Virus record (IMG/VR): IMGVR_UViG_3300023174_000606
Coordinates: 1 to 24,755 of that record
Direction: 5' to 3' (one strand)
DNA length: 24,755 nucleotides
From: a virus
Below are positions 2,526 to 5,306 of this stretch, in pieces. Under the pieces are notes generated by a model, which had not been told where the DNA came from, made no database searches, and saw only the letters and a program-made list of their open reading frames with translations. Numbering within the stretch: position 1 is the stretch's first letter; the number at the start of each line of letters is the position of its first letter. A program made the position numbers and the translations under genes.

Positions 2526-2632
2526 TGTGTGAGCGTGACGGTTGCGGATGCGGAATCCCAGCCAAAACAATCAATGACATTGCCAAAGAATTGGCGGAAC
2601 TTAATCCGCCGACAGAGTTAGAAAACAACTAA
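2525..2632 (+). CDS. tiny cysteine-rich protein
   Basis: This 35-aa reading frame starts in a TAATG overlap with the preceding gene and opens MCERDGCGCGIPAKT, with three cysteines. Its second half (KTINDIAKELAELNPP) echoes the last 12 residues of the upstream protein. The overlap, the shared motif and the absence of other coding potential here support it as real. A metal-binding adaptor role is possible, but nothing in the sequence proves a function. Confidence 0.55.
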   Translation: MCERDGCGCGIPAKTINDIAKELAELNPPTELENN

Positions 2633-2670
2633 CACCCAACTCAAACCAAAAAGAAACGGGGGAAAGCCAA

Positions 2671-3141
2671 ATGGCTTTTTCAGCACCTAGCAGTAACACA
2701 GAATCGGTAAAAGTTGCCGATTTGAACGGACACCTACTTATCCTTGAACCACTTGAATACAAAACAGGTATTTCAACAGTTCACGGTGATGCCGATGCAA
2801 TTGAAGTACGCATCAACGATTTAGACACTGGCCTATCACACGAATCAGTGTTGTTCTTCAATGTAGCTTTGAAGAACGCATTGAGAAACAAGATTGGTCA
2901 AAAAGTGCTTGCAAAAATTTCACAAGGTCAAGCAAAGCCTGGAAAGTCTGCGCCGTGGATTCTTGTGGATGCAACAGGCGATGCCGATGCAGTGGCAAAG
3001 GCCAACGCATTTATTTCGGGCGTGTCACTTACTGCAAATGCAGGCGGTGCCACACTTTCAACAACAACTGCACCTGCCAATATCAATGACCCTGCAGTGC
3101 AGGCGTTGTTGGCACAATTGGGAGCAAAACAAACTAACTAA
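2671..3141 (+). CDS. probable phage ssDNA-binding (OB-fold) protein
   Basis: The 156-aa protein has the layout of an actinophage protein family often annotated as SSB-like: a beta-rich core (LNGHLLILEPLEYKTGIST, EVRINDLDTG, SVLFFNVALKNALRNKIGQKVLAKISQG), a KPGKSAPWILVDAT strand and a flexible Ala/Thr-rich tail ending in PAVQALLAQLGAKQTN. It sits after the exonuclease and before the methyltransferases and primase, which fits a replication/recombination role. GGGGGA lies 8 nt before the ATG. The tail lacks the classic acidic DDDIPF tip of bacterial SSB, so partner binding would differ. Confidence 0.6.
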   Translation: MAFSAPSSNTESVKVADLNGHLLILEPLEYKTGISTVHGDADAIEVRINDLDTGLSHESVLFFNVALKNALRNKIGQKVLAKISQGQAKPGKSAPWILVDATGDADAVAKANAFISGVSLTANAGGATLSTTTAPANINDPAVQALLAQLGAKQTN

Positions 3142-3144
3142 AAC

Positions 3145-3173
3145 TCTTGGGGGCTAGTCCTTTCCACCCAAGA
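3145..3173 (+). other. stem-loop directly after the SSB-like gene
   Basis: TCTTGGG (3145-3151) and CCCAAGA (3167-3173) form a perfect 7-bp stem with a 15-nt loop, which can close further through GG/CC pairs. No T-run follows, so it is not a standard terminator. It stands just upstream of the tRNA-like element and may be part of the same RNA domain. Confidence 0.5.
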
Positions 3174-3175
3174 AC

Positions 3176-3243
3176 GGCGTTGTGATGGTTCACCCACGGG
3201 GCAACTGGCAACAGTTGGGGCAGGTTCGATTCCTGCAACGCCA
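3176..3243 (+). ncRNA. tRNA-like structured RNA lacking an anticodon arm
   Basis: The ends pair perfectly over 7 bp (GGCGTTG 3176-3182 with CAACGCC 3236-3242), followed by A3243 as a possible discriminator. Inside, CAGG-TTCGATT-CCTG (3221-3235) is a canonical T arm with the TTCGATT loop. CAACTG-GCAA-CAGTTG (3202-3217) is a 6-bp hairpin capped by a GNRA tetraloop. No 7-nt anticodon loop with T33 and no convincing D arm can be drawn. The acceptor plus T stack is 11 bp, against 12 in normal tRNA. It could be a degenerate class II tRNA (the GCAA hairpin as variable arm), a tRNA mimic, or a tRNA 3'-end copy of the attP kind. The pairing is seen; the role is unknown. Confidence 0.45.
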
Positions 3244-3272
3244 CGCAAGACATTACCGAACGGGGGAAAATA

Positions 3273-3425
3273 ATGGAAAAGACAATAGAAATACAGTTGC
3301 AAGAATTGCGTGAGCAGATTGCAAACGAGATTGAAGATAGGTTTTGGGAGATAAGCGCCGACTCGCCTGTTGATGTTGCACAAAAGATAATTAAGGAATG
3401 TGTCAAGATTGCGAGAGGCAAATGA
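3273..3425 (+). CDS. small helical protein upstream of the methyltransferase
   Basis: A 50-aa protein (MEKTIEIQLQELREQIANEI...) that looks entirely helical and charged. GGGGG stands 6 nt before its ATG. Its TGA overlaps the ATG of the C5 methyltransferase (ATGA), so it is the first gene after the structured RNA gap and is probably coupled to the methyltransferase. I recognise no family. It could be a methyltransferase partner or an unrelated small protein. Confidence 0.6.
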   Translation: MEKTIEIQLQELREQIANEIEDRFWEISADSPVDVAQKIIKECVKIARGK

Positions 3426-4069
3426 GGCTCCTTGACCTTTACTCTAAAGCGGGGGGGGCAGCAATGGGTTATCACCGCGCAGGGTTTGAGGTTGTTGGCG
3501 TGGACATCAAAAAGCAAAAGCGATTTCCATTTACATTCATTCAGGCAGATGCGCTGGAAGTTTTAGAGGATAAAGCATTTCTTGATTCTTTTGATGTAAT
3601 ACACGCATCACCACCTTGCCAAACTCATAGTGCAACCAAGCACTTGCGCAATGCACAAGGAAAGACCACAACAAAGATTGATTTAATTCCTCAAACTAGA
3701 GCTGCACTTATTGCAAGCGGCAAGCCTTATGTTATTGAGAATGTTCCGGGTGCGCCCTTAATCAATCCCATCCAAATGTGTGGTTCATCCTTTGGGCTTA
3801 CTGCCCGCCGCCATAGGTTGTTTGAATCTAATTATGAACTGACGGGCTCAATTTGTGATCACAAAACACAAGGAAAGCCTGTTGGGATTTATGGTTCAAT
3901 GCGCGATGAAATACCCGGTGGCGGTCACACCGCAAAGACAATTGAACAAGCACGAGATGCAATGGGAATTGATTGGATGATTTGGGGCGAGTTGGTAGAG
4001 GCAATACCACCGGCTTATACATTTGAAATTGGCAAACAACTAATGGGGGCAATTAATGAGACTAATTAA
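3422..4069 (+). CDS. DNA (cytosine-5-) methyltransferase, short phage form
   Basis: This 215-aa enzyme carries the C5-MTase motifs in order: motif I LLDLYSKAGGAAMGY (residues 3-17, usually DLFxGxGG), motif IV SPPCQ with catalytic Cys66, motif VI ENV at 106-108, motif VIII LTARRHRLFES (127-136) and a motif X-like GKQL near the end. It is shorter than bacterial enzymes and has little room for a target-recognition domain, as is common in phages. It methylates DNA, probably to evade host restriction, since no partner nuclease is adjacent. The ATG at 3422 follows GAGAGG. An eight-G run codes for Ala-Gly-Gly in motif I. It overlaps the next gene by 14 nt. Confidence 0.9.
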   Translation: MRLLDLYSKAGGAAMGYHRAGFEVVGVDIKKQKRFPFTFIQADALEVLEDKAFLDSFDVIHASPPCQTHSATKHLRNAQGKTTTKIDLIPQTRAALIASGKPYVIENVPGAPLINPIQMCGSSFGLTARRHRLFESNYELTGSICDHKTQGKPVGIYGSMRDEIPGGGHTAKTIEQARDAMGIDWMIWGELVEAIPPAYTFEIGKQLMGAINETN

Positions 4070-5306
4070 CGCAGATTGCATTGAGGCAATGAAGGCAATG
4101 CCTGATAACTTGGTGGATTCCATTGTCACCGACCCGCCGTATGAGCTTGGCTTTATGGGCAAATCGTGGGATGCAAGTGGTATTGCATTTAATGTTGATG
4201 TATGGCGTGAGGCGTTGCGAGTAATTAAGCCCGGCGGTCACTTGATTGCTTTCAGCGGTTCTCGCACCTATCACCGAATGGCAGTTGCCATTGAGGATGC
4301 AGGGTTTGAAATCCGCGATCAGATTATGTGGGTTTATGGGTCAGGGTTTCCTAAGTCGCATAACATTTCAAAAAATTTGGATAAAGCCAAAAACATTGAA
4401 GTTTGGGAAAATAACGCTTACGGCGGTGGCAATTCAAAATGCGATAAATGCGGAAAATGGTTGATTTCAGGAAGCCCCTGCCAATGCCCAAAGCCAATTA
4501 TTGAATTTAAGACGGAAGCCGCGAAGCAATGGAACGGCTGGGGCACCGCACTGAAACCAGCACACGAGCCAATGGTGCTTGCTCGCAAGCCGTTGATTGG
4601 CACCGTTGCCAACAATGTGCTGACTTACGGCGTTGGCGGATTGAACATTGACGGGTCAAGGGTTGGGACAACAGTTGAAACTTGGCCAAAATCAAGATCA
4701 TTTCCTTATGGCCAAGAACGAACTTATGGCAGCAAAGATGCTGCAACCGAATTGACTCAAGATGCACCCGCAGGTCGCTTCCCCGCCAACTTCATTCACG
4801 ATGGCAGTGATGAGGTTGTGGCGTTGTTTCCTGATACAAAATCGGGTGGTAAACAAACAAGTGATTTTGCAAACGAAGATGGATTGTTTGGATTCGGAGG
4901 TCAGCCTCAAAATACAACCCAACCATCATCAGGCAGCGCCGCTCGATTCTTTTACTGCGCAAAGGCAAGCAAGCGTGACCGCAATGAGGGGCTTGATGGG
5001 TTTGAAACAGTTGTTGCTGGCGGTATGCAGGGCAGACAAGATGGCTCAATGGGTTCAATCACAATGAACAAAAATCATCACCCAACTGTAAAACCAACAA
5101 CGCTGATGCAATACTTGGTTCGCCTAGTGACACCGCCAAACGGTGTTGTGCTTGACCCGTTTATGGGTTCAGGTTCAACTGGCAAGGCGTGTGCCTATGA
5201 AGGCTTTGATTTCATTGGCATAGATCAATCGGCAGAGTATGTGGAGATCGCGAAGGCTCGCATTGACTTTGCCCTGGCAGATAAAGCAACAGAGTTGCCG
5301 TTATGA
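4056..5306 (+). CDS. beta-class DNA adenine-N6/cytosine-N4 methyltransferase
   Basis: The 416-aa protein opens with the catalytic DPPY motif (residues 26-29) and ends with the SAM-binding DPFMGSGSTG block. This IV-then-I order defines the beta class. DPPY favours adenine N6 methylation, but N4-cytosine cannot be excluded. A Cys4 knuckle (Cys129, Cys132, Cys142, Cys144 in CDKCGKW...CQCP) lies between the motifs with the target-recognition region. HPTVKP before motif I is typical of the family. GGGGG is 6 nt upstream of the ATG. It follows the C5 enzyme with a 14-nt overlap, so the phage probably marks its DNA in two ways. No restriction enzyme is nearby. Confidence 0.9.
   Translation: MRLINADCIEAMKAMPDNLVDSIVTDPPYELGFMGKSWDASGIAFNVDVWREALRVIKPGGHLIAFSGSRTYHRMAVAIEDAGFEIRDQIMWVYGSGFPKSHNISKNLDKAKNIEVWENNAYGGGNSKCDKCGKWLISGSPCQCPKPIIEFKTEAAKQWNGWGTALKPAHEPMVLARKPLIGTVANNVLTYGVGGLNIDGSRVGTTVETWPKSRSFPYGQERTYGSKDAATELTQDAPAGRFPANFIHDGSDEVVALFPDTKSGGKQTSDFANEDGLFGFGGQPQNTTQPSSGSAARFFYCAKASKRDRNEGLDGFETVVAGGMQGRQDGSMGSITMNKNHHPTVKPTTLMQYLVRLVTPPNGVVLDPFMGSGSTGKACAYEGFDFIGIDQSAEYVEIAKARIDFALADKATELPL

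What the first reader, a model, noticed from the sequence alone, without database searches (positions are those of the whole stretch)
3142..3272. Structured RNA with a tRNA T arm and a GNRA hairpin but no anticodon arm
A 7-bp closing stem, a perfect T arm with TTCGATT loop and a 6-bp GCAA tetraloop hairpin occur within 68 nt, preceded by another 7-bp hairpin. It is not a standard tRNA: no T33 loop, no D arm, an 11-bp acceptor-T stack. If aligned with 12 bp it has a C1-A72 mismatch like an initiator tRNA. It may be a tRNA mimic, decayed class II tRNA or attP remnant.
Basis: partly seen in the sequence, partly recalled or inferred. Interest (0 to 1): 0.7.

Follow-up and report, generated by a model that had tools for sequence, protein, structure and literature searches.

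The report
Anticodon-less tRNA mimic in phage operons
Viruses of freshwater actinobacteria carry, between two genes, a strongly conserved piece of RNA that folds like the top half of a transfer RNA but has no anticodon; it belongs to no catalogued RNA family and may mark where the virus's long messenger RNA is cut.

Summary
The structure is real and is a member of a new RNA family. In the window it lies at 3176-3243, between a probable ssDNA-binding-protein gene (phrog_870) and the next gene, just after a hairpin (3145-3173). A covariance model built without this subfamily finds it once (E 5.5e-8). Every IMG/VR relative of the upstream gene with enough flank carries the element (about 137 distinct loci). 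The T stem is paired in 74/74 distinct sequences, with all four Watson-Crick pairs at three positions. 408 double-changed cells occur against 125 in shuffles. G1, R73-C74, the T loop TTCRANT and the spacing to the next start codon (25-34 nt, or exactly 2) are conserved. Rfam gives no match above threshold; it is not a decayed tRNA or attP remnant. Most likely role (inferred, about 45%): a tRNA-shaped processing signal ("tRNA punctuation") cut by host RNase P/RNase Z, with the upstream hairpin capping the freed 3' end. A trans-acting tRNA mimic or a cis translation regulator remain open. No transcript data were available.

The parts
2671..3141 (+). upstream gene, phrog_870 family, 156 aa, predicted beta-rich OB-like fold; probable ssDNA-binding protein
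   Evidence: PHROG hit E 8e-23, function unknown; AlphaFold2 pLDDT 74, strand-strand-strand-helix-strand-strand order; best Foldseek hit is the PRD1 P12 ssDNA-binding protein, weak, E 0.07
3145..3173 (+). hairpin I, 0-6 nt upstream of the tRNA-like part in nearly all relatives; loop CTAGTCCTTT, consensus YCCUUYC (resembles the 16S anti-Shine-Dalgarno tail)
   Evidence: folds; loop motif conserved in most families, lost in several
3176..3243 (+). tRNA-like structure (TLS), 68 nt including discriminator A3243
   Evidence: R1 hit 3176-3244, 33.3 bits, E 5.5e-8; one clear copy per record in 41 phage records
3176..3181 (+). acceptor-like stem 5' strand GGCGTT; G1 conserved
   Evidence: 5 of 6 pairs show double changes; G1 in 73/74
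3182..3193 (+). D-like arm GTGA-TGGT-TCAC, GG in the loop
   Evidence: 3 pairs with double changes; 45/55 distinct sequences have a >=3-bp stem, 44 of them with GG in the loop (shuffles: 40% and 20%)
3198..3201 (+). conserved G-run (GGGG); in most families it lies in the loop of the arm that replaces the anticodon arm
3202..3217 (+). 6-bp hairpin with GNRA (GCAA) tetraloop, window subfamily
   Evidence: compensatory variants CAACTA-GCAA-TAGTTG, CATAC-GCAA-GTATG, CAGCGA-GAGA-TCGTTG
3220..3236 (+). T arm, 5-bp stem, loop TTCGATT
   Evidence: 74/74 paired at all 5 positions; loop TTCRANT in all 74
3237..3242 (+). acceptor-like stem 3' strand AACGCC
3243..3244 (+). R73-C74 equivalent (discriminator A, then C), present in 74/74 sequences
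3262..3266 (+). G-run of the Shine-Dalgarno sequence of the next gene; start codon 3273 lies 29 nt after the TLS
3273..3425 (+). downstream small ORF (50 aa); the downstream gene differs among relatives
   Evidence: no family hit; downstream genes vary

Best explanation
It is a conserved inter-cistronic tRNA-like structure: an acceptor-T stack of 11-12 bp, a D-like arm and T loop that can form the tRNA elbow, and a short G-rich or GNRA-capped arm in place of the anticodon arm. Shown by comparative sequence: the fold, its universality in this phage lineage, its fixed place and its conserved ends. Inferred: it works as 'tRNA punctuation'. Host RNase P cuts at G3176 and RNase Z (or another tRNA 3' nuclease) after A3243. 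This separates the mRNA of the ssDNA-binding-protein block from the genes downstream. Hairpin I then sits 0-4 nt from the new 3' end and shields it from 3' exonucleases; the downstream mRNA gets a short defined leader with its own Shine-Dalgarno, or becomes almost leaderless where the ATG is 2 nt after the discriminator.
For: Fold: T stem 74/74 with all four pair types at three positions; 408 double-changed cells against 125 shuffled, and sliding the partners destroys the signal; independent model hit. Shape-reading enzymes rather than one tRNA synthetase are implied, since the acceptor sequence varies freely (25 distinct 3' strands) while G1, T loop and R73-C74 are kept. RNase P pairs with R73-C74 (PMC4919922) and cuts tRNA-like phage RNAs such as M3 and C4 and some mRNAs (PMC11143913). 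Architecture: stop codon, hairpin I, mostly 0-4 nt, G1; TLS, then 25-34 nt to the next start in 54 of 73 loci despite different downstream genes, or exactly 2 nt in six loci with conserved N-termini and no room for a Shine-Dalgarno. The six cultured soil actinophages inspected have a different GC-rich, terminator-like hairpin after the same gene, so an mRNA end there is plausible. No terminator-like U-run here.
Against: No transcript or cleavage data. Position -1 is never U (0/74), although bacterial RNase P prefers U(-1). C75 is not conserved. The stack is usually 11 bp, not 12. The conserved G-run and the CCUUYC loop of hairpin I are not explained by punctuation. Constant spacing could partly reflect common descent.
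Confidence: 0.45

Rival explanations
1. Trans-acting tRNA mimic: the element is released as a stable ~68-nt RNA that occupies a host factor reading tRNA shape (tRNA modification or end-processing enzyme, EF-Tu, a tRNA-attacking defence nuclease or toxin), acting as decoy or adaptor.
For: Complete elbow (D-loop GG plus T loop) kept while the decoding part is lost; acceptor identity unimportant; one clear copy per genome at a fixed place.
Against: Inter-cistronic spacing on both sides is conserved, which a free RNA would not need; no promoter or terminator of its own is apparent; no known target; it never moved to another locus in the genomes scanned.
Confidence: 0.25
2. Cis-acting translation or stability switch: hairpin I's anti-SD-like loop, the G-run of the TLS and the G-rich Shine-Dalgarno of the next gene compete for pairing, and a tRNA-binding factor sets downstream translation.
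For: CCUUYC loops and G-runs are in principle complementary; spacing to the start codon is constrained.
Against: No covariation between the two loops (observed -5.64 against shuffled -5.79 kcal/mol, p 0.82). The loop motif is lost in several families (L061, L081, L294) that keep the G-run. It is kept in L283-type phages that have no Shine-Dalgarno to sequester. Downstream genes differ.
Confidence: 0.2
3. Decayed tRNA gene or attP fragment.
For: T arm and stem resemble a tRNA; Rfam tRNA-Sec sub-threshold 28.5 bits.
Against: Strong covariation; no exact match of the 3' half in 396 Actinomycetota genomes; tyrosine integrase in only 3 of 41 phage records.
Confidence: 0.02
4. Plain 3' stabiliser or terminator whose tRNA resemblance is incidental.
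For: Hairpin I directly follows the stop codon; soil actinophages carry terminator-like hairpins at the same place.
Against: The T loop, G53-C61 equivalent and D-loop GG are kept without exception or nearly so; no U-run.
Confidence: 0.08

Closest known systems
Canonical tRNA (Rfam RF00005) and tRNA-Sec (RF01852)
   Same: order acceptor - D arm - third arm - T arm; T loop TTCRANT with G-C closing pair; GG in the D loop; G1-C72; purine discriminator
   Different: no 7-nt anticodon loop; third arm has a G-rich loop or a GNRA tetraloop; stack usually 11 bp; CCA not encoded; below Rfam gathering scores
Other non-decoding tRNA-like RNAs: mascRNA of MALAT1, plant-virus 3' TLS, tmRNA tRNA-like domain, bacterial Y RNAs
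   Same: tRNA-shaped top half without a decoding anticodon arm; several are RNase P substrates
   Different: different hosts, topology and sequence; none is an inter-cistronic element of a DNA-phage operon; no Rfam match. Details of those families are from general knowledge
RNase P substrates among phage RNAs (M3 RNA, P1/P7 C4 antisense RNA) and polycistronic mRNAs
   Same: phage or mRNA transcripts cut by RNase P (PMC11143913)
   Different: to my knowledge those lack a conserved D/T-loop elbow; cleavage of the present element is untested
tRNA punctuation of mitochondrial transcripts
   Same: proposed principle: tRNA-shaped elements mark cut sites between genes
   Different: known cases use real tRNAs (general knowledge); here a non-decoding mimic, function inferred

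Membership tests
tRNA gene | 7-nt anticodon loop with U33 and a decodable anticodon | tested here: not met
   third arm has a GCAA tetraloop in the window and G-rich loops elsewhere; ARAGORN 0 genes
tRNA gene | T arm 5 bp with TTCRANY loop and G53-C61 | tested here: met
   74/74
tRNA gene | D arm with GG in the loop | tested here: met
   window 3182-3193; 44 of 55 distinct relatives
tRNA gene | 7+5 bp acceptor-T stack | tested here: not met
   6+5 in the window; 12 bp only in a few subfamilies
tRNA gene | score above Rfam gathering threshold | tested here: not met
   no gathering hit; tRNA-Sec 28.5 against 47; RF00005 18.3 against 29 for three relatives
Any described Rfam 15 family | gathering-score match | tested here: not met
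   window; 20 relatives at E<=1 give only sub-threshold tRNA-type matches, two of them to a separate tRNA
Selenocysteine tRNA | UCA anticodon and a 13-bp acceptor-T stack | tested here: not met
   no anticodon, 11 bp
RNase P substrate | G1, T-loop elbow, R73-C74 contact | tested here: met
   recognition rules from PMC4919922
RNase P substrate | U(-1) preference | tested here: not met
   0 of 74 have U at -1
RNase P substrate | cleavage at N-1/G1 | not testable with these tools
   needs biochemistry or end mapping
attP/tRNA remnant | identity to a host tRNA 3' end plus a nearby integrase | tested here: not met
   0 of 396 genomes; integrase in 3 of 41
Intrinsic terminator | GC-rich hairpin followed by a U-run | tested here: not met
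   0 found in 2600-3500

The most novel reading that the evidence does not exclude
A previously undescribed RNA family: a non-decoding, elbow-preserving tRNA mimic fixed between genes in a large lineage of DNA phages of freshwater actinobacteria. It recruits the host tRNA-maturation machinery, or another tRNA-shape reader, to control phage mRNA.
Probability: 0.6. Interest if true: 0.85.

Novelty: new variant of a known kind. Interest (0 to 1): 0.72.

Why it matters
Tailed DNA phages are known for real tRNAs, not for conserved tRNA mimics inside their operons. Here the elbow that tRNA-reading enzymes touch has been kept under strong selection while decoding was discarded, in viruses of some of the most abundant freshwater bacteria. 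If it is a processing signal, it is tRNA punctuation with a non-decoding mimic in a phage; if it is a decoy, it points to an unknown tRNA-directed host defence. Either is testable with a small reporter.

Tried and rejected
Folding z-scores alone are not significant and would have misled. Kissing between the hairpin I loop and the G-run: no covariation. Shine-Dalgarno sequestration by hairpin I: loop kept where no Shine-Dalgarno exists. Integration site, decayed tRNA: rejected. Rfam families: none. MAFFT alignment of all families misplaces the 5' acceptor strand, so the T stem was counted from the rigid T loop and the rest on a model-fitted alignment, which leans towards its structure. Search for the acceptor 5' strand by best complement alone is weak (null reaches >=5 in 30%). 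A protein-independent pattern scan gave 40 loci, nearly all next to phrog_870; the exceptions are two elements at contig ends, one real tRNA-Ser (L329) and one beside a serine recombinase (L355), probably an att fragment. Literature searches found no description. Methyltransferase relatives mostly lack the element, so it travels with phrog_870.

Full report
Observation. Window 3142-3272 is the gap between a 156-aa gene (2671-3141) and a 50-aa ORF starting at 3273. It holds hairpin I (3145-3173) and, two bases later, a 68-nt tRNA-like structure: acceptor-like stem 3176-3181/3237-3242, D-like arm 3182-3193, G-run 3198-3201, GCAA hairpin 3202-3217, T arm 3220-3236, discriminator A3243. ARAGORN finds no tRNA and Rfam no family at its gathering score; the best sub-threshold match is tRNA-Sec at 28.5 bits against a cut-off of 47. 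Folding energy is unremarkable.

Relatives. The first 80 IMG/VR relatives of the upstream gene carry the element directly after the gene wherever the contig reaches far enough. Two wider scans brought the set to 143 distinct downstream regions. 132 show a T arm by simple pattern. Five more carry it displaced by a small ORF (L268, L303, L313) or with a TGCAANT T loop (L271, L273); all five are found by the model. The remaining six are the cultured soil actinophages (Gordonia, Mycobacterium, Nocardia, Streptomyces), which have GC-rich terminator-like hairpins instead.

Covariation. With the T stem counted rigidly from the T loop, which involves no structural fitting, all five positions pair in 74 of 74 distinct sequences. 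Three positions show all four Watson-Crick pairs and the loop is always TTCRANT. A covariance model from 16 sequences of other subfamilies (R1) finds the window element at 3176-3244 with 33.3 bits, E 5.5e-8, and nothing else in the window. It finds 85 copies in 87 loci, one each, and one clear copy in each of 41 phage records, many of 30-35 kb (a few further matches are very weak). On the model-fitted alignment 95.6% of cells pair (shuffled 63.4%), 408 cells have both sides changed (shuffled 125), and sliding partners by one to three bases destroys the signal. The window's own subfamily keeps a GNRA-capped hairpin through compensatory changes.

Ends and context. G1 is conserved in 73 of 74, position -1 is C, A or G but never U, and hairpin I mostly ends 0-4 nt before G1. 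A purine discriminator followed by C is present in all 74 (allowing for the one-base register of the 7-bp acceptors). The distance from the discriminator to the next start codon is 25-34 nt in 54 of 73 loci even though the downstream genes differ (zinc-ribbon proteins, methyltransferases and others). In six loci it is exactly 2 nt, before a protein with a conserved N-terminus. The G-rich Shine-Dalgarno is used by several other genes of the phage as well. A pattern scan that ignores proteins still lands next to phrog_870 in nearly all of 40 cases.

Host and lineage. WhiB, RecB/Cas4-like exonuclease, primase-polymerase, terminase, portal and capsid genes mark a tailed actinophage; whiB is the marker used to assign freshwater actinophages (PMC6802176). 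The upstream protein is predicted as a beta-rich OB-like fold whose best, weak structural match is the ssDNA-binding protein P12 of PRD1. The element is absent as a model hit from 296 actinobacterial genomes (without a positive control this is weak), and its tRNA-like 3' half has no exact match in 396.

Mechanism. Because acceptor sequence drifts freely while G1, elbow and R73-C74 are kept, whatever reads the element most likely reads tRNA shape, not amino-acid identity (inference). RNase P, RNase Z and the CCA-adding enzyme fit. RNase P contacts R73-C74 (PMC4919922) and is known to cut phage RNAs and mRNAs with tRNA-like folds (PMC11143913). The layout stop codon - hairpin - cut site - TLS - cut site - short leader then resembles tRNA punctuation, with hairpin I protecting the upstream mRNA end. 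Against it stand the missing U(-1), the unconserved C75, the unexplained G-run and CCUUYC loop, and the lack of any transcript data. A trans-acting mimic and a cis switch remain possible; loop-loop covariation for the latter was sought and not found.

Verdict. Of its three interpretations, 'tRNA mimic' stands and the two remnant ideas fall. The family appears undescribed in Rfam and in the paper library; most subscription papers are not in that library. The function is inferred, not shown.

Noticed in passing
L064:2720-2795, L065:3198-3273, L066:6214-6289, L073:3838-3913, L076:6340-6415, L079:6309-6384, L174:2265-2340, L220:2113-2188, L242:2102-2177, L259:2106-2181, L053 about 4610-4685: A tRNA-Gly(UCC)-like gene with a 6- or 8-nt anticodon loop, encoded CCA and a conserved T-stem mismatch lies within a few nt upstream of a Mom-like DNA-modification ORF in all 11 cases (Mom identity checked by Pfam PF25680 on L242 and L220). 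Across 41 phage records it occurs only in those with Mom (5 of 6 Mom records, 0 of 35 others). It suggests charged tRNA-Gly as a substrate of Mom; no paper in the library links glycyl-tRNA and Mom. Seven cultured phages with Mom lack an adjacent tRNA, as does the Mom of G008.
   Followed up: partly
window 3154-3164 and the same loop in relatives: The loop of hairpin I (consensus YCCUUYC, often GUCCUUUCU) resembles the anti-Shine-Dalgarno tail of 16S rRNA; lost in several subfamilies.
   Followed up: partly
L283, L287, L269, L272, L270, L294 downstream of the TLS: The next start codon is exactly 2 nt after the discriminator with no room for a Shine-Dalgarno; 3' processing would give a nearly leaderless mRNA.
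   Followed up: partly
L314:3420-3481: An Acidimicrobiaceae MAG contig carries a distant phrog_870 relative followed by a TLS-like fold with a 7-bp acceptor and what reads as an encoded ACCA end; R1 does not reach it.
   Followed up: no
L355:9490-9560 (minus strand): A TLS-like sequence directly downstream of a serine recombinase gene, probably a tRNA-derived attachment site and not a family member.
   Followed up: partly
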